Assembly (NCBI RefSeq): GCF_003853705.1
Contig: NZ_QTQI01000010.1
Coordinates: 124,001-188,000 of the forward strand
Length of the DNA stretch: 64,000 nucleotides
Reading direction: 5' to 3'
From: Burkholderia sp. Bp8992
GTDB lineage: Bacteria; Pseudomonadota; Gammaproteobacteria; Burkholderiales; Burkholderiaceae
Below the pieces are notes generated by a model, which searched no databases, was not told the DNA's origin, and saw only the letters and a list, made by a program, of their open reading frames with translations. The translations under genes were made by a program, and so were the position numbers. Each line of letters opens with the position of its first letter. Position 1 is the stretch's first letter. Shown here piece by piece: positions 55,728 to 61,707 of this stretch.

Positions 55728-58700
55728 TTACTTCGCGACGACGACCGGAATCCCCTTCAGCATCCCCGCGCCCTTCATCTCGTCAAGCGCGTGCTGCACG
55801 GCCGCGCTCGTCGCCGCGTCGATGCCGAGCTGCAGCGCGAGCTCGCGCTCCGCGCGCTTCACGCCGGCCAGGTTGCGCACCTTCACGTGGCCGAAGCCGC
55901 GCACGCGGGCGTGCAGGTCGGCCAGTTGCACGACCTGCGCCGCATTGCCGGCCGTCATCGCGGCGAATGCGCGCGTGAGCGTCGTCTCGTAGTCGTCGGC
56001 GAGTGCGCGCTCCATCTTGCGCTCGACGGTGCGGCCGAACGGATCGAGCCCCGTGCCGCGCAGGCTGCGCACGCGCGCCAGCACGCCGAACACCGGCCAC
56101 ATCCACTGGCCGAACACACGCTTCTTCGGCGTGCTGCCGTCGCGGCCGGCCTTCGCGACCGTCGGCGGCGCAAGGTTGAACTTCACGCGATACGCCTGCC
56201 CCGGCACGCCTTCGAACTGCGCTTCGAGCGCCGTGCGGAATGCGTCGTCCGTGTACAGCCGCGCGACCTCGTATTCGTCCTTCACCGCGAGCAGCCGGTA
56301 GAACGTCGTCGCGACCGCGCGCGTCAGCGCGTCGTCGCCCTTCGCGCGTGCGGCGTTCACGAGCGCCCGGTAGCGCTCGACGTAACGCGCGCCGCCGTAG
56401 CCGTCGAGTCGCGCTTCGCGATCGGCGATCAGCTCGGCGAGCGTCTCCGGCGCGGCACGTGCGGCCACCGTGTGACGCGCATTCCACAACGCATCGAGGC
56501 CCGCCGCGTCGCCGGCCGCCATCCGGCCGATCGAGAACGCGAGCTTGTTCATCGGCACCGCGACGTTGTTCAGCTCGATCGCGCGCATCATCGCGGCGAG
56601 CGACACCGGCACGAGGCCGAGCTGCCACGCATAGCCGAGCATCAGGATATTCGCGCCGATCGAATCGCCGAGGAATTTCGCGGCGAGCGCCTGCGCGTCG
56701 CAGCTCGACAGGTAGCCGTCGCCGGCCGCATGGTGCATCTTCTCGAGCAGCGCGTCCGCATGCAGGTTCGCGTCGGGGTTCTGCACGAACGACGCGTTCG
56801 GGATCCGGTGCGTGTTGACGACGATCCGCGTGCGCTCGTGGCGCACCGTCTGCAGCGCTTCGGCGCTCGCGCCGACGACCATGTCGCACGCGAGCAGCAC
56901 GTCGGCCTGCTGCGTGTCGATACGCACCTGGTTCAGCCACCGGTCGCTCGACGCGATCCGCACGAACGACAGCACCGAGCCGCCTTTCTGCGCAAAGCCC
57001 ATGAAGTCGAGGACCGACGCGCTCTTGCCTTCGAGGTGCGCGGCCATGCTGATCAGCGCGCCGACCGTCACGACACCCGTACCGCCGACACCCGTCACGA
57101 GCATGTCGAACGGCGCCGCGTCGAGATGGGTCGCCGGCACCGGCAGCCCGTCGACGCGCGCGGCGAGCGCCGCTTCGTCGAACGCGGCGCCGGCCGCCTT
57201 CTTCAGCGCCGCGCCTTCGACCGTCACGAAGCTCGGGCAGAAGCCGTTCACGCACGAATAGTCCTTGTTGCACGACGACTGGTCGATGCGGCGCTTGCGG
57301 CCGAGCGGCGTCTCGAGCGGCTCGACCGACAGGCAGTTCGACTGCACGCCGCAGTCGCCGCAGCCTTCGCACACGGCGTCGTTGATGAACAGGCGCTTGT
57401 CCGGGTCGGGGAATTCGCCTTTCTTGCGGCGGCGGCGCTTCTCGGCCGCGCAGGTCTGGTCGTAGATCAGCACGGTGACGCCCGGCGTCTCGCGCAGCTC
57501 GCGCTGCACCGTGTCGAGCTCGCTGCGGTGATGGAACGTCGTGCCCGTCGGAAACTGCCCGTGATGGCCGTCGTACTTCTCCGGCTCGTCGGACACGACG
57601 ACGAAGCGCGACACGCCCTCCGCCTCGACCTGCCGTGCGATCTGCGGCACCGAGATGCTGCCGTCGACCGGCTGGCCGCCCGTCATCGCGACCGCGTCGT
57701 TGTAGAGGATCTTGTACGTGATGTTCGCTTTCGCGGCGACCGCCTGGCGGATCGCGAGGATGCCCGAGTGGAAGTAGGTGCCGTCGCCGAGGTTCTGGAA
57801 CACGTGCTTCGTGTTGGTGAACATCGCGTGCGCGGCCCAGTCGACGCCCTCGCCGCCCATCTGGATCAGCCCCGTCGTGTCGCGCTCCATCCACGACGCC
57901 ATGAAGTGGCAGCCGATCCCGGCCTGCGCGATCGAGCCTTCCGGCACCTTCGTCGACGTGTTGTGCGGGCAGCCCGAGCAGAAGTACGGCGTGCGCTTCA
58001 CCGCGTCGGCTTCGTTCGACAGGATCTGCGGCGCGACCAGATCGACGACGCGTTCGCGGCGGTCGAGCGCGGGCTTGTGCCGCGCGAGCCATTCCGCGAA
58101 CACCGGCAGGATGCGCGACGGGCGCAGTTCGCCGAGCTCGGACAGCAGGCAGGCGCCGGCGGCGTCGTGCTTGCCGAGCACGCGCGGGCGCGCGCCTTCG
58201 CTGCGGTTGTACAGGTAGTCCTTGAGCTGCTGCTCGATGACCGGGCCCTTCTCCTCGATCACGAGCACTTCGTCGAGCCCGTCGACGAAGGTCTCGACGC
58301 GCGTCATCTCGAGCGGATACGACAGGCCGACCTTGTAGATCCGCACGCCGGCGGCGTCGAGATCGGCAACCGTCAGGTCGAGGCGGCGCAGCGCTTCCAT
58401 CAGGTCGAGGTGCGCCTTGCCGCAGGTGACGATGCCGACGTTCGCGTGCGTGCTCGGCGCGATCCACTTGTCGATGCTGTTGGTGCGCGCGAAATGGCGC
58501 ACCGCGTCGAGCTTCGCGGCGAGGCGCGCCTCGATCGTCAGGCTCGGCAGATCGGGCCAGCGGTTGTGCAGGCCGCCCGACGGCGGCGTGAAGCCTTCCG
58601 GTGCCGGCCACTGCGTCTGCAGCGCGTCGAGGTCGACGGTCGAGCCCGACTCGACCGTTTCCGAGATCGCCTTGAAGCCGACCCATGCGCCCGAGTAGCG

Positions 58701-59300
58701 CGACAGCGCCCAGCCGTACAGGCCGAATTCGAGCATGTCGGCGATGTTCGCCGGGTTCACGACCGGCATGTGCCACGCGATCATCGCGAAGTCGCTCTGG
58801 TGCGGCATCGACGACGACACGCAGCCATGGTCGTCGCCCGCGACGACCAGCACGCCGCCGTGCGGCGACGAACCGTACGCGTTGCCGTGCTTCAGCGCGT
58901 CGCCGGCGCGATCGACGCCCGGACCCTTGCCGTACCACATCGCATACACGCCCTCGACCGTGCGCTCGGGATCGGCTTCGACGCGCTGCGTGCCGAGCAC
59001 GGCCGTGCCGCCGAGTTCCTCGTTGATCGCCGGCAGGAAGCGCACGCCGCTGGTATCGAGCAGTTTCTTCGCCTTCCACAGCTGCTGGTCGACCATGCCG
59101 AGCGGCGAGCCGCGATAGCCGCTGACGAAGCCGGCCGTGTTGAGTCCCTGCTCGATGTCGACCGTGCGCTGCATCAGCAGCAGGCGGACCAGCGCCTGCG
59201 TGCCGGTCAGGAAGATCCGGCCGCGCGTCGCGGTCAGGTTGTCGGTCAGGCGGTAGTCGGACAGGGCAGGCGTGCCATCGACGGGCAGGCGGGCGGTCAT
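55728..59300 (-). CDS. Indolepyruvate ferredoxin oxidoreductase, fused form
   Basis: A 1190-residue enzyme that oxidatively decarboxylates 2-oxo acids (arylpyruvates or branched) to acyl-CoA with thiamine diphosphate and iron-sulfur clusters. In order: the pyrimidine-binding domain from about 20, the CoA/transketolase-C part, the TPP-binding region GDGTYFHSG...YNDAVAMTGGQ (about 505-543), a ferredoxin motif CEGCGDCGVQSNC (644-656), and a gamma-type domain from VTGVGGTGVVTVG to the end. The alpha and gamma subunits of archaeal enzymes are thus fused. GGAGA precedes the ATG. It has a private control region with a repeat array upstream. Confidence 0.93.
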   Translation of the reverse strand: MTARLPVDGTPALSDYRLTDNLTATRGRIFLTGTQALVRLLLMQRTVDIEQGLNTAGFVSGYRGSPLGMVDQQLWKAKKLLDTSGVRFLPAINEELGGTAVLGTQRVEADPERTVEGVYAMWYGKGPGVDRAGDALKHGNAYGSSPHGGVLVVAGDDHGCVSSSMPHQSDFAMIAWHMPVVNPANIADMLEFGLYGWALSRYSGAWVGFKAISETVESGSTVDLDALQTQWPAPEGFTPPSGGLHNRWPDLPSLTIEARLAAKLDAVRHFARTNSIDKWIAPSTHANVGIVTCGKAHLDLMEALRRLDLTVADLDAAGVRIYKVGLSYPLEMTRVETFVDGLDEVLVIEEKGPVIEQQLKDYLYNRSEGARPRVLGKHDAAGACLLSELGELRPSRILPVFAEWLARHKPALDRRERVVDLVAPQILSNEADAVKRTPYFCSGCPHNTSTKVPEGSIAQAGIGCHFMASWMERDTTGLIQMGGEGVDWAAHAMFTNTKHVFQNLGDGTYFHSGILAIRQAVAAKANITYKILYNDAVAMTGGQPVDGSISVPQIARQVEAEGVSRFVVVSDEPEKYDGHHGQFPTGTTFHHRSELDTVQRELRETPGVTVLIYDQTCAAEKRRRRKKGEFPDPDKRLFINDAVCEGCGDCGVQSNCLSVEPLETPLGRKRRIDQSSCNKDYSCVNGFCPSFVTVEGAALKKAAGAAFDEAALAARVDGLPVPATHLDAAPFDMLVTGVGGTGVVTVGALISMAAHLEGKSASVLDFMGFAQKGGSVLSFVRIASSDRWLNQVRIDTQQADVLLACDMVVGASAEALQTVRHERTRIVVNTHRIPNASFVQNPDANLHADALLEKMHHAAGDGYLSSCDAQALAAKFLGDSIGANILMLGYAWQLGLVPVSLAAMMRAIELNNVAVPMNKLAFSIGRMAAGDAAGLDALWNARHTVAARAAPETLAELIADREARLDGYGGARYVERYRALVNAARAKGDDALTRAVATTFYRLLAVKDEYEVARLYTDDAFRTALEAQFEGVPGQAYRVKFNLAPPTVAKAGRDGSTPKKRVFGQWMWPVFGVLARVRSLRGTGLDPFGRTVERKMERALADDYETTLTRAFAAMTAGNAAQVVQLADLHARVRGFGHVKVRNLAGVKRAERELALQLGIDAATSAAVQHALDEMKGAGMLKGIPVVVAK

Positions 59301-59635
59301 GGGGGATGTCTCCGGATTGTGCTGTTCTGGGCTGCGCGGCGGGGCGTCGGGCGACGCGTGACCGGCGGCAGCGAATGGCTCTATTTTTTCGTGCGCAGCC
59401 GAGAATGTTTTTTCTCATCTTGCTCGGGCGGGGCTGTAGCGAGAAAAACTGCGCAGGTTTTCGCGTGGATTTGAGAGAGTTTTCGCGCGCGGTGGTGGGG
59501 GCGCGGTTGGCGGGTGTCGACGCGGCCGGCCGTCTTGCCGGGAAAACCGATGCGCGCTTGAGGGCATCGCCATGGCCACGCGATGGGTGCTCGAACCCCG
59601 TCTGCCAAGGGTTTCGAGGGCTTTTGGCAGTCACC
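59301..59635. other. Upstream region of the indolepyruvate oxidoreductase gene
   Basis: No gene. It includes an AT-richer patch (59380-59425, with TATTTTTTC and GTTTTTTCTC) that probably carries the promoter of the oxidoreductase, though no clear -35/-10 pair is visible. It joins the repeat array that starts at 59636. Confidence 0.5.
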
Positions 59636-60955
59636 CTCACCGTTGAATTGCACAGGGTTCCGATTGGTCGAGGGCGCCGGATGTCCACAACGCCGCGCCC
59701 TTCGCGCCGATCGGGTTCGCGCGCTCACCGTTCGATTGCACAGCATTTCGAGTGGCGTCGGGGCCGGGATGTCCACATCCGGAATCGGCATGCCGTTCGC
59801 CCGGGTGTCGACGCTCACCGTTGGAATTCACAGCGCGACGAGTGGGTCCTGACGGTGGATATCCACATCCTGGCCGGCTCGTTTCGACGATCCGCTGTTC
59901 ACCCTCACCGTTCGAATACACAGGGTCGTGAGTGGGTTCGTCGGGCGGATATCCACGCCGGAATACGCATGCTGCGCGACTACCGCTTCGCACTCACCGT
60001 TGAAATGCACAGGGCTTCGACTGGCTGCGGCGGCTGTTTTCCACGGCCGGACCTGCATTGCCAGCGGGCCGTGCGCGTATGCTCACCGGTGAAAATCACA
60101 GCGCTTCGAGTGGCTTGGGGGGCCGGATATCCACATCGGGGAAAATCGGCCGATCGCTCGCGGAGGCGCGTTTCATCGAGCGCCGGCGACGCGGCAATCC
60201 ATGCCGGAGGCGGCTGGTCACCCGATCGGACGCTGACACTCACCGTCGAAAAACACAGTGCCGCGAGTCGTTTCGGCGGGCGGATATCCACACTGAAATG
60301 CGCACGGTGCGCCTGACACGGCACGTGCTCCAGGCGACGTCATCAGCCGGACGGCCGCGCCCGGACGGGCTGCCGGCCAATGATGCGCGGATACTCACCG
60401 TTGAATTCCACAGCGCGTCGAGTCGCTTGGGAGATCGCGAATGCGCGACGAAATTCGCACGTTCCGGACCACGTGCCCGCGCTTGCCGTTAGAATGCACG
60501 CCCGCTCGATCGCGATCCGGACCCGGATATCGGCGTCGCGACGCACATCGGGCTCGGTCGCGCATTCTTGCATTCCGTCAGAATGCGCGGCGCGCCGAAT
60601 CACGGCAAAGGCCGGCGAGCCTTGCTGGAACTGGCGCGTCGCGCGATCGGCTTCGACACTCACCGTTGGATTTCACAGCATTTCGCTTGGTCTCGGAGCG
60701 AGTTGTCCACACCCTTCTTCACGTATTGCGCGACATCAGGCGATCCTCACCGGTGAAATCCACAGCGCGCCGAGTCGTTTCGGAGCGAGGATATCCACAA
60801 CCGGTTGCGCGACGGGATCGCCATGCGCACATCGGCGAACGCCTCGGTGCACCGCAACCGGGGACACCCGCAAAGGCTTGTCCGGACTGCCTCGGCGGCA
60901 CCCTCACCGTTCAAATGCACAGCGTTTCGAGTCGTCGTCTAGCGGGTTGTCCACA
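59636..60955 (+). repeat. Degenerate 89-bp repeat array with DnaA-box-like ends
   Basis: Units begin at 59636, 59724, 59814, 59904, 59993, 60082, 60239, 60394, (60482), (60571), 60659, 60746 and 60903; those in brackets are badly decayed. Steps are 87-90 bp except three of 155-157. Each clear unit has a core of 53-54 bp: it starts close to CTCACCGTTGAAATGCACAG, then a variable GCG..TCGAGTSG middle, and ends in GGATATCCACA, TTGTCCACA, ATGTCCACA or TTTTCCACG. The 34-36 bp linkers are also loosely alike. The period is not a multiple of three, so no protein is encoded. See findings for interpretation. Confidence 0.9.
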
Positions 60956-61002
60956 TCCGCTCATCGATGCGCGATCGCGCCGGCACGCGCGCCCGGGCAA
61001 TG

Positions 61003-61560
61003 TCATTCGGCAATCGACCGGATGACCGCTGCCGGATTGCCGCCGACCAGCGTATTCGGCGGAACGTCGCGCGTGACGACCGCCGCGGCCGCGACGACCG
61101 AATTCTCGCCGACCGTCACGCCACCGATGATCGTCGCGCCGGCGCCGATCCAAACGTTCCGTTCGATCACGATCGGCTTCGCGACGACGCCGTCGCGCCG
61201 CCGCGAAGGCTCGATCGGATGACCGGACGTGATCAGGCTGACGTTCGGGCCGATCATCACGTCGTCGCCGATCTCGAGTCCGCCCAGGTCGTAGAACGTG
61301 CAGTTCTGGTTGACGAACACGTTGCGCCCGAGCTTCATGCCGGTGCCACCCGTCGCGTGAAACGGCGGGATCAGCACGAAGCCGTCGTCGACCTGCGTGC
61401 CGATCAGTTCTCCGAACAATGCACGAACCTCGCATGCATCGTCGAACGTCAGACGGTTGAGCCGCGCGGTGATCGCCATCGCGCGCTTGACCTCGGCCAC
61501 CATGGCCGCCGATTCCGGTGTTCTCCGCGAAATGATCGTGGTGCGATCGTCGTTTGCCAT
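61003..61560 (-). CDS. Hexapeptide-repeat sugar O-acetyltransferase
   Basis: A 185-residue acetyl-CoA-dependent acetyltransferase of the maltose/galactoside (Maa/LacA) group. The left-handed beta-helix begins near residue 75 (GRNVFVNQNCTFYDLGGLEIGDDVMIGP), with the catalytic His in SGHPIEPSRRRDG (about 112-124) and the hexapeptide coil IVIERNVWIGAGATIIGGVTVGENSVVAAAAVVTRDVPP. The N-terminal helical region is typical. Its stop lies 47 bases from the end of the repeat array. It is divergent from the GST gene. Confidence 0.93.
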   Translation of the reverse strand: MANDDRTTIISRRTPESAAMVAEVKRAMAITARLNRLTFDDACEVRALFGELIGTQVDDGFVLIPPFHATGGTGMKLGRNVFVNQNCTFYDLGGLEIGDDVMIGPNVSLITSGHPIEPSRRRDGVVAKPIVIERNVWIGAGATIIGGVTVGENSVVAAAAVVTRDVPPNTLVGGNPAAVIRSIAE

Positions 61561-61680: not shown

Positions 61681-61689
61681 TTTTCCACA
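61681..61689 (+). promoter_or_regulatory. DnaA-box-like site
   Basis: TTTTCCACA matches the relaxed E. coli DnaA-box consensus TTWTNCACA at all nine positions. A single site in the acetyltransferase/GST divergent region, 726 bp from the end of the repeat array. It could be chance. Confidence 0.35.
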
Positions 61690-61707
61690 GGATTTTTGTC
61701 GATCTTC

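What the first reader, a model, noticed from the sequence alone, without database searches (positions are those of the whole stretch)
59636..60955. 89-bp repeat array with two DnaA-box-like elements per unit
Seen: 13 units (11 clear, two decayed but still in phase) at 59636-60903, spaced 87-90 bp with three gaps of 155-157 bp. On the plus strand each unit carries a first box ending in CACAG (often NNATNCACAG) and a second, 35 bp further, that is mostly TATCCACA or TTGTCCACA. The best ones differ from TTATCCACA by a single base (59859-59867, 60127-60135, 60284-60292, 60703-60711, 60791-60799, 60947-60955). All are in one orientation. Established: clusters of DnaA boxes away from oriC (such as datA in E. 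coli) titrate DnaA or promote its ATP hydrolysis. Inference: this may be a Burkholderia DnaA-titration or other replication-control locus, or a multi-site binding array of another protein. I know of no described element of this form, though I cannot search.
Basis: partly seen in the sequence, partly recalled or inferred. Interest (0 to 1): 0.82.

Follow-up and report, generated by a model that had tools for sequence, protein, structure and literature searches.

The report
Repeated DnaA-box array in Burkholderia
A non-coding stretch of about 1.3 kb on the main Burkholderia chromosome repeats one unit built from origin-of-replication signals some eleven times, and it is probably a sponge for the replication-starting protein DnaA that helps the cell start copying its chromosome only once per cycle.

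Summary
The array is real. There are 11 units at 59636-60963, all on the + strand, about 89 bp apart. Each unit is CTCACC-N9-CACAG-N5-CGAGT-...-[A/T]T[A/G]TCCACA. A profile of the unit finds 9-25 copies in 52 of 65 genus genomes and none in 13. A 299-genome family sample gave one weak hit outside the genus. In the 31 arrays measured it always lies beside the same gene, IOR, at a median 0.096 of the chromosome from oriC in 18 genomes.

Partial copies of the unit lie at the edges of oriC in most array-bearing genomes aligned and in 0 of 8 array-less ones. Most striking, where box 1 has CACA the next base is G in 378 of 379 units; where box 2 has it, in 2 of 309. Published methylomes show CACAG is adenine-methylated in Burkholderia.

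Best reading: a DnaA-binding control locus that works like E. coli datA or B. subtilis DnaA-box clusters, with one methylatable and one methylation-proof box per unit. DnaA binding, methylation here and effect on initiation are inferred, not shown.

The parts
59636..60963 (+). whole array: 11 recognisable units, about 89-bp period, in the gap between the IOR gene and a hexapeptide acetyltransferase-like gene
59636..59693 (+). unit 1 (CACAG 59651, TCCAC 59684)
59724..59781 (+). unit 2 (CACAG 59739, TCCAC 59772)
59814..59871 (+). unit 3 (CACAG 59829, TCCAC 59862; one-mismatch DnaA box 59859-59867)
59904..59961 (+). unit 4 (CACAG 59919, TCCAC 59952)
59993..60049 (+). unit 5 (CACAG 60008, TCCAC 60040)
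60082..60139 (+). unit 6, best match to the profile (CACAG 60097, TCCAC 60130; DnaA box 60127-60135)
60239..60296 (+). unit 7 (CACAG 60254, TCCAC 60287; DnaA box 60284-60292)
60394..60433 (+). unit 8, first half only (CACAG 60409)
   Evidence: model positions 1-40
60483..60640 (+). two decayed units in phase (near 60483 and 60572)
   Evidence: by eye; spacing 265 = 3 periods; not found by the profile
60659..60715 (+). unit 9 (CACAG 60674, TCCAC 60706; DnaA box 60703-60711)
60746..60803 (+). unit 10 (CACAG 60761, TCCAC 60794; DnaA box 60791-60799)
60903..60959 (+). unit 11 (CACAG 60918, TCCAC 60950; DnaA box 60947-60955)
55728..59300 (-). IOR: indolepyruvate ferredoxin oxidoreductase-like gene, the constant left neighbour (POR, TPP_enzyme_C and DUF6537 domains; the full name is by recognition)
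   Evidence: homolog in 65 of 65 genus genomes
61003..61560 (-). hexapeptide acetyltransferase-like gene (called maa here), right neighbour in some genomes only

Best explanation
The array is a distal, oriC-related DnaA-binding control locus. Each unit offers DnaA one good site (box 2, [A/T]T[A/G]TCCACA) and one weak site (box 1, RAATNCACAG) about 34 bp away, plus two further conserved blocks (CTCACC and CGAGT) that probably bind a partner protein. About 11 units on chromosome 1, roughly a tenth of the chromosome from oriC, are copied early after initiation. That abruptly doubles the DnaA-binding capacity and lowers free DnaA, or helps inactivate it, so that oriC does not fire twice. Box 1 is a CACAG site, which Burkholderia methylates on one strand, and box 2 avoids that site. 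Methylation could therefore tune the weak box while leaving the strong box constant. Shown here: the anatomy, conservation, phyletic spread, position, sharing of the core with oriC, and the CACAG rule. Inferred: DnaA as the ligand, methylation at this locus, titration or inactivation as the effect, and the partner protein.
For: One place: IOR lies beside 31 of 31 arrays measured, first unit 333-348 bp from its start in 28 of 31. A profile finds 9-25 units in 52 of 65 genus genomes. Core letters are 94-98% identical, spacers 65-82%. Box 2 keeps T at DnaA-box positions 2 and 4 in 99% of 353 units (box 2 was picked there as the best match to TTATCCACA with at least 6 of 9 letters). Distance to oriC is a median 0.096 of the chromosome in 18 genomes, against 0.10 for E. 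coli datA (PMC5010248, passages). Among aligned oriC sequences, CACAG-N5-CGATT...TTATCCAC is at the left edge in 11 of 16 array-bearing genomes and 0 of 8 array-less ones, and CACAG-N5-CGAGT at the right edge in 10 of 16 and 0 of 8. Unit-profile hits of 8 bits or more: 11 in 34 kb of oriC stretches, 2 in 380 kb of control chromosome. A smaller group of units lies between dnaA and the methyltransferase gene in 5 of 6 genomes checked. In the 11 near-complete genomes shown's capped list, all listed units are on the contig with dnaA.
Against: No binding or phenotype data. Box 2 is a perfect TTATCCACA in only 18 of 353 units; ATATCCACA is commonest (173), and box 1 lacks the TT. No site matching the recalled IHF consensus, a part of datA, was found in the array. 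13 of 65 genus species live without the array. The constant distance to oriC may only reflect gene order, since IOR lies 266-427 kb from oriC in 4 array-less genomes. In two rearranged genomes the array is 485 and 842 kb from oriC. Of 16 array-bearing oriC sequences, 5 lack the exact left and 6 the exact right motif; four (L174, L176, L177, L178) have neither in exact form, and array-less ones still carry a CACAG at the left edge. In one search the oriC stretches are homologous to one another, 4 of the 11 hits match only the DnaA-box half, 2 of 11 are in array-less genomes, and the single best score of that call (23.7 bits) is in the control, not in oriC (best 15.2).
Confidence: 0.56

Rival explanations
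1. Inter-chromosome timer that works like Vibrio crtS: copying the array on chromosome 1 signals to the initiator (RepA) of chromosome 2, perhaps through the CTCACC block.
For: The unit's CTCACC is also in the chromosome 2 iteron (CCCGAAAANNCTCACCT; PMC4948915 passages; pattern found in 65 of 65 genomes). One edge iteron of the G003 chromosome 2 origin reads CTCACCGGTCCGGATTTACAGCGTTTCG, like half a unit. A 2026 paper reports extensive contact of the B. cepacia chromosome 2 origin with a large part of chromosome 1, and calls for finding timers beyond those known in V. cholerae and A. tumefaciens (PMC13342612 passages).
Against: The unit profile finds nothing above control level in eight stretches with chromosome 2 iterons (best 4.6 bits, 0 hits of 8 bits or more in 42.5 kb). 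No CCCGAAAA half precedes the unit: the positions before CTCACC are poorly conserved. The iteron is present equally in the 13 array-less genomes.
Confidence: 0.13
2. Binding array of another DNA-binding protein, for example an origin-sequestration or nucleoid factor that reads CACAG methylation (SeqA-like), with the DnaA-box resemblance secondary.
For: The CACAG rule, two conserved blocks that are not part of a DnaA box, and preference for ATATCCACA over the perfect DnaA box (173 against 18 of 353); with the G before it this makes GATATC, a palindrome.
Against: Box 2 keeps T at positions 2 and 4 and CCACA, and the core is shared with oriC edges, beside perfect DnaA boxes.
Confidence: 0.21
3. 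Neutral or selfish tandem array without function, spread by duplication.
For: Copy number varies and some arrays hold near-identical units (G011, G023).
Against: Core letters 94-98% identical against spacers 65-82%; 195 of 353 same-strand neighbours are 87-91 bp apart although spacers diverge; one locus in the 31 arrays measured.
Confidence: 0.05
4. Transcribed repeat: a family of small RNAs or a peptide-coding repeat.
For: Open frames cross the array, but such frames are common by chance in G+C-rich DNA.
Against: The usual period, 89, is not a multiple of 3; no consensus RNA structure in 72 units; no Rfam match up to E 5.
Confidence: 0.03

Closest known systems
E. coli datA
   Same: Non-coding DnaA-box locus at 0.10 of the chromosome from oriC, binding sites conserved and spacers variable between strains (PMC4585315 and PMC5010248, passages)
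   Different: No IHF-consensus site found in the array; 9-20 units at a regular step in the 31 arrays measured; a CACAG site in nearly every unit; found in part of one genus
B. subtilis DnaA-box clusters and the S. coelicolor DnaA-box cluster
   Same: Box clusters near oriC said to restrain untimely initiation (as told in PMC4585315 and PMC5010248, passages; primary papers not seen)
   Different: Regular period, two-box unit with extra conserved blocks, and the CACAG / non-CACAG split (comparison with those loci is from recall, their sequences were not fetched)
CACAG-marked replication origins of B. cenocepacia
   Same: CACAG methylation, TGCACAG 7-mers and DnaA boxes at replication origins (PMC7364216 and PMC4948915, passages)
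   Different: The passages seen describe origins, not an array hundreds of kb away; in the oriC alignment a perfect DnaA box is followed by G, in the array box 2 avoids G
Vibrio crtS
   Same: A chromosome 1 site at a conserved place with methylation sites and a putative DnaA box (PMC6090056, passages)
   Different: Long repeat array; no likeness of the whole unit to stretches with chromosome 2 iterons above control

Membership tests
datA-type DnaA-control locus | cluster of DnaA-box sequences in a non-coding locus outside oriC | tested here: met
datA-type DnaA-control locus | conserved position fairly near oriC | tested here: inconclusive
   median 0.096 of chromosome in 18 genomes, but the neighbour gene keeps a similar place in 4 array-less genomes
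datA-type DnaA-control locus | binding sites conserved, spacers not | tested here: met
datA-type DnaA-control locus | IHF site within the cluster | tested here: not met
   no [AT]ATCAANNNNTT[AG] on either strand of 59301-61100 (consensus recalled)
datA-type DnaA-control locus | binds DnaA and promotes ATP hydrolysis; deletion causes over-initiation | not testable with these tools
   needs bench work
titrating DnaA-box cluster (B. subtilis type) | several DnaA boxes near oriC that bind DnaA | tested here: inconclusive
   boxes and place met; binding not testable
chromosome 2 iteron array / crtS-like site | recognisable likeness to sites of the chromosome 2 initiator | tested here: not met
   profile best 4.6 bits in stretches with chromosome 2 iterons, within control range; CTCACC shared
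structured RNA or coding repeat | covarying structure, Rfam match or frame-keeping period | tested here: not met

The most novel reading that the evidence does not exclude
A methylation-coded initiator array. A type III methyltransferase encoded some tens of kb from the origin marks one box of each unit on one strand only, while the partner box is kept free of the mark. When a fork passes an array with all units in one orientation, as here, one sister keeps the whole set of marks and the other is bare until remethylated. The array would then be a DnaA sink whose capacity differs between sister chromosomes for a short time, and so a replication clock or sister-identity tag. A linked version is that it also times the secondary chromosomes.
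Probability: 0.18. Interest if true: 0.88.

Novelty: new variant of a known kind. Interest (0 to 1): 0.74.

Why it matters
How bacteria with several large chromosomes limit DnaA and time initiation is largely open for Burkholderia, and no datA-like element of the genus appeared in the listings of the searches made (capped, open-access library only). If the array binds DnaA it gives a naturally repeated and deletable sink whose unit number runs from 9 to 20 in the 31 arrays measured, so the titration model can be tested by counting units. The CACAG rule would link a type III modification system present in 65 of 65 genus genomes (its CACAG specificity inferred) to replication control, and it makes a specific prediction for DnaA binding to methylated and unmethylated boxes.

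Tried and rejected
RNA family or structured RNA: no Rfam match up to E 5, no consensus structure. Coding repeat: usual period not a multiple of 3.

Chromosome 2 iterons and crtS: followed because of the shared CTCACC and because two iteron spacings in G002 (88 and 155) resemble array spacings. The profile found no excess in stretches with those iterons, and the iteron is in 65 of 65 genomes, array-less ones included.

First idea that the units 20-22 kb from dnaA mark oriC itself: rejected in G003, because the cumulative GC-skew minimum falls in the 63-73 kb window and the conserved region at 68 kb fits oriC better. oriC was not confirmed by experiment.

Co-occurrence with the methyltransferase: a homolog is in 65 of 65 genomes, so presence does not track the array. 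Its identity to the query does (89-100% in the 52 with array, 70-86% in the 13 without), but this is what phylogeny alone would give. That P0001 is the CACAG enzyme is inferred from type, length, a neighbouring type III res gene and place; it was not compared with BCAL3494.

Failed or weak searches: one genome-contig scan used a gap I had set wrongly and found nothing; the second scan, allowed after an empty first, found 12 stretches, all Burkholderia. Tandem Repeats Finder did not list the array. A search for a recalled paper on toxic DnaA-binding cloning gaps found nothing.

Biases and dropped rows: the 72-unit model was built from units picked by a pattern that requires CACAG, so the box 1 figure is partly conditioned; the base after box 2 was not required by it. 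Of 400 distinct units, 47 were dropped from the box 2 tables (box not at offset 44-46 or fewer than 6 of 9 letters), and 44 of the 353 kept lack CACA. Gapped positions were left out of the identities (24 core positions in one of four pairs, 3 in another). The 31 arrays were fetched because they lie near IOR: the window and 30 of the 52 array-bearing genomes. In one search, 18 of the 22 array-bearing genomes given to entered the medians; G059 and G065 are told apart and G041 and G056 were left out because I had no contig length. The P value treats related units as independent and is descriptive. Profile searches of over 40 genomes used stricter filters that lose weak units.

Full report
What is there. 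The window holds 11 units of one sequence between 59636 and 60963, all on the + strand. The spacings are 88, 90, 90, 89, 89, 157, 155, 265, 87 and 157, and two decayed copies in phase fill the 265 gap by eye. A unit reads CTCACC-N9-CACAG-N5-CGAGT-about N16-[A/T]T[A/G]TCCACA. 11 of the window's 51 CACAG sites lie in the array, while the window as a whole has fewer CACAG than shuffles predict (51 against 91).

How widespread. A strict pattern matched in 52 of 65 genus genomes, with 0 matches for the reversed control pattern in each. A sequence-only profile from 72 units hits the same number, with 9-25 units per genome, smaller groups near dnaA included, and none in 13. In a family sample of 299 genomes it hit 37, 36 of them in the genus and one weak single hit (G201, E 6.8e-4) outside. 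A tighter pattern over the named species genomes gave 12 stretches, all Burkholderia, among them B. cenocepacia, B. dolosa, B. lata, B. latens and B. aenigmatica.

One locus. The IOR gene left of the array (POR, TPP and DUF6537 domains) has a close homolog in 65 of 65 genomes. In 31 arrays measured (the window and 30 of the 52 array-bearing genomes) the first unit starts 333-348 bp from the IOR start in 28; the other three are at 433, 482 and 3337 bp. In the 13 array-less genomes the stretch fetched beside IOR holds no unit up to E 5 (for G052 the contig ends within 3.1 kb). A GST or ion-channel gene follows within 243-351 bp in 8 of 13, at 2.4 kb in one, and no such neighbour was recognised in four. 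So the array was either gained at this gap by one clade or lost by others.

Spacing and orientation. In 31 arrays with 404 units there are 353 neighbouring pairs on the same strand: 195 are 87-91 bp apart, 46 are 177-181, 31 are 155-157 and 22 are 165-169. Ten of 31 arrays contain units in reverse (one a single unit, the others a block), so a single orientation is usual but not required.

What is conserved. In 400 distinct units CTCACC is 98-99% fixed per letter, CACAG 96-99%, CGAGT 83-98%. Box 2, picked as the best match to TTATCCACA and kept in 353 units, has T at positions 2 and 4 in 99%, C at 5, 6 and 8 in 97-99%, A at 7 in 97% and A at 9 in 90%; positions 1 (A or T) and 3 (A or G) are loose. 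The commonest forms are ATATCCACA 173, TTGTCCACA 43, ATGTCCACA 39 and TTATCCACA 18 of 353. Between the window and four relatives the core letters are 94-98% identical, the rest of the unit 75-89% and the spacers 65-82%.

The CACAG rule. Where box 1 has CACA, the next base is G in 378 of 379 units (21 more units lack CACA). Where box 2 has CACA, the next base is G in 2 of 309 (T 141, C 97, A 69). In the smaller groups of 13 loci the figures are 64 of 64 (5 more lack CACA) and 0 of 65. In the oriC alignment a conserved perfect TTATCCACA is followed by G in nearly every genome, so DnaA itself should tolerate G there. CACAG is methylated at its fourth base, on the forward strand only, in B. cenocepacia, and the enzyme BCAL3494 is a type III methyltransferase (PMC7364216, passages and one section); B. 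pseudomallei has a type III beta enzyme with the same motif (PMC6813387, passages). The same B. [quoted passage not shown] A type III methyltransferase gene (P0001; PF01555) lies 31-33 kb from the contig start in G003, next to a type III res gene, and a homolog is in 65 of 65 genomes. That it is the CACAG enzyme is inferred.

Link to oriC. In G003 the cumulative GC-skew minimum falls in the 63-73 kb window. A region at 68.1-68.6 kb with TTATCCACA boxes and GTTAAC and GTATAC sites is conserved in 65 of 65 genomes. In 24 aligned oriC sequences (16 with array, 8 without), CACAG-N5-CGATT...TTATCCAC is at the left edge in 11 of 16 and 0 of 8, and CACAG-N5-CGAGT at the right edge in 10 of 16 and 0 of 8. 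L174, L176, L177 and L178 have neither in exact form; L177 and some others carry altered letters. Array-less sequences still have a CACAG at the left edge, without CGATT. Scored with the unit profile, 19 oriC stretches (34 kb) have 11 hits of 8 bits or more, control stretches of G003 chromosome 1 have 2 in 380 kb, and eight stretches with chromosome 2 iterons 0 in 42.5 kb. The oriC stretches are homologous, 4 of the 11 hits are the DnaA-box half alone, 2 lie in array-less genomes, and the best score of that call, 23.7 bits, is a lone partial unit in the control.

Place on the chromosome. With the IOR start as the array's position, in 18 genomes with known contig length the array is 217-303 kb from dnaA and 306-485 kb from oriC (median 335 kb, 0.096 of the chromosome); two further genomes give 299 and 842 kb from oriC. 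In G010 and G059, where the array is 485 and 842 kb from oriC, it keeps its distance to dnaA (249 and 256 kb). IOR lies at 266-427 kb from oriC in four array-less genomes, so the distance may be inherited gene order and not selection on the array. datA in E. coli is at 0.10 (PMC5010248, passages). A smaller group of the same units lies between dnaA and the methyltransferase gene in G003, G011, G019, G025 and G031, and beside the methyltransferase but away from dnaA in rearranged G010.

How it probably works. Inference: DnaA binds box 2 of each unit, and box 1 weakly, and a partner binds CTCACC and CGAGT. The array is duplicated early in the replication period and acts as a sink, or as a place where DnaA is inactivated. 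The mark on box 1 could set the affinity of the weak site. None of these steps is shown. The strongest points against are the frequent A at position 1 of box 2, the missing IHF-type site, the 13 species without the array, and the lack of any binding data.

Alternatives. A chromosome 2 timer is the most interesting rival. CTCACC is also in the chromosome 2 iteron and one edge iteron looks like half a unit, but the profile sees no excess there and the iteron is present in 65 of 65 genomes. Another methylation-reading protein is possible. A selfish repeat is contradicted by the conservation, and an RNA or coding repeat is not supported.

Literature. Searches for Burkholderia with DnaA box and intergenic repeat, CACAG and methyltransferase, DnaA titration, repeat arrays, crtS and DnaA-box clusters and one for datA and DnaA-box clusters in general listed no paper whose title or abstract start describes this array; some searches showed only part of the papers they found. 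Only passages of PMC7364216, PMC4948915, PMC12371093, PMC6090056, PMC4585315, PMC6813387, PMC13342612 and PMC5010248 were seen (plus one whole section of PMC7364216). The library lacks most subscription journals, so this is weak evidence of novelty.

Counts of oriC motifs and box 2 forms were redone, gene names were tested, and results against the reading are now told; the confidence was lowered from 0.57 to 0.56 and that of the other-protein rival raised from 0.20 to 0.21 for these.

Noticed in passing
window 61681-61690: A further lone TTTTCCACAG (one mismatch from a DnaA box, CACAG included) beyond the acetyltransferase gene; the profile finds no unit there.
   Followed up: no
L032:1580-1900 and L034:9540-9860: A DnaA-box-rich stretch alike in both genomes, with GTTAAC and GTATAC sites, just before a tRNA-Val gene, about 21-35 kb from dnaA, resembling oriC in parts; a small group of array units lies 1-3 kb before it. 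It may be a second origin-like or control element.
   Followed up: partly
L040:1052-1102 (G003 chromosome 1, about 901 kb): A single partial unit (23.7 bits, perfect TTATCCACA) far from oriC, where an open frame of 413 aa spans it on the other strand; likely coding DNA.
   Followed up: partly
L170 and L171 (oriC of array-less G042 and G017): The left edge of oriC has CTCACC-N7-CACAG, close to but not the unit's CTCACC-N9-CACAG; possibly an early form of the half unit.
   Followed up: no
G010 and G059: Rearrangements separate dnaA and the array from oriC (array 485 and 842 kb from oriC) while the array stays about 250 kb from dnaA.
   Followed up: partly
L202 (G003 chromosome 2, 1847-1852 kb): A second group of chromosome 2 iterons about 135 kb from the origin group, as the 2016 B. 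cenocepacia paper reported for its strain at 140 kb.
   Followed up: no
L033:4307-4936 and L134: Near-identical units inside arrays, at about 190-bp steps in G003 and 88/89-bp steps in G023, so unit number seems to change by tandem duplication.
   Followed up: partly
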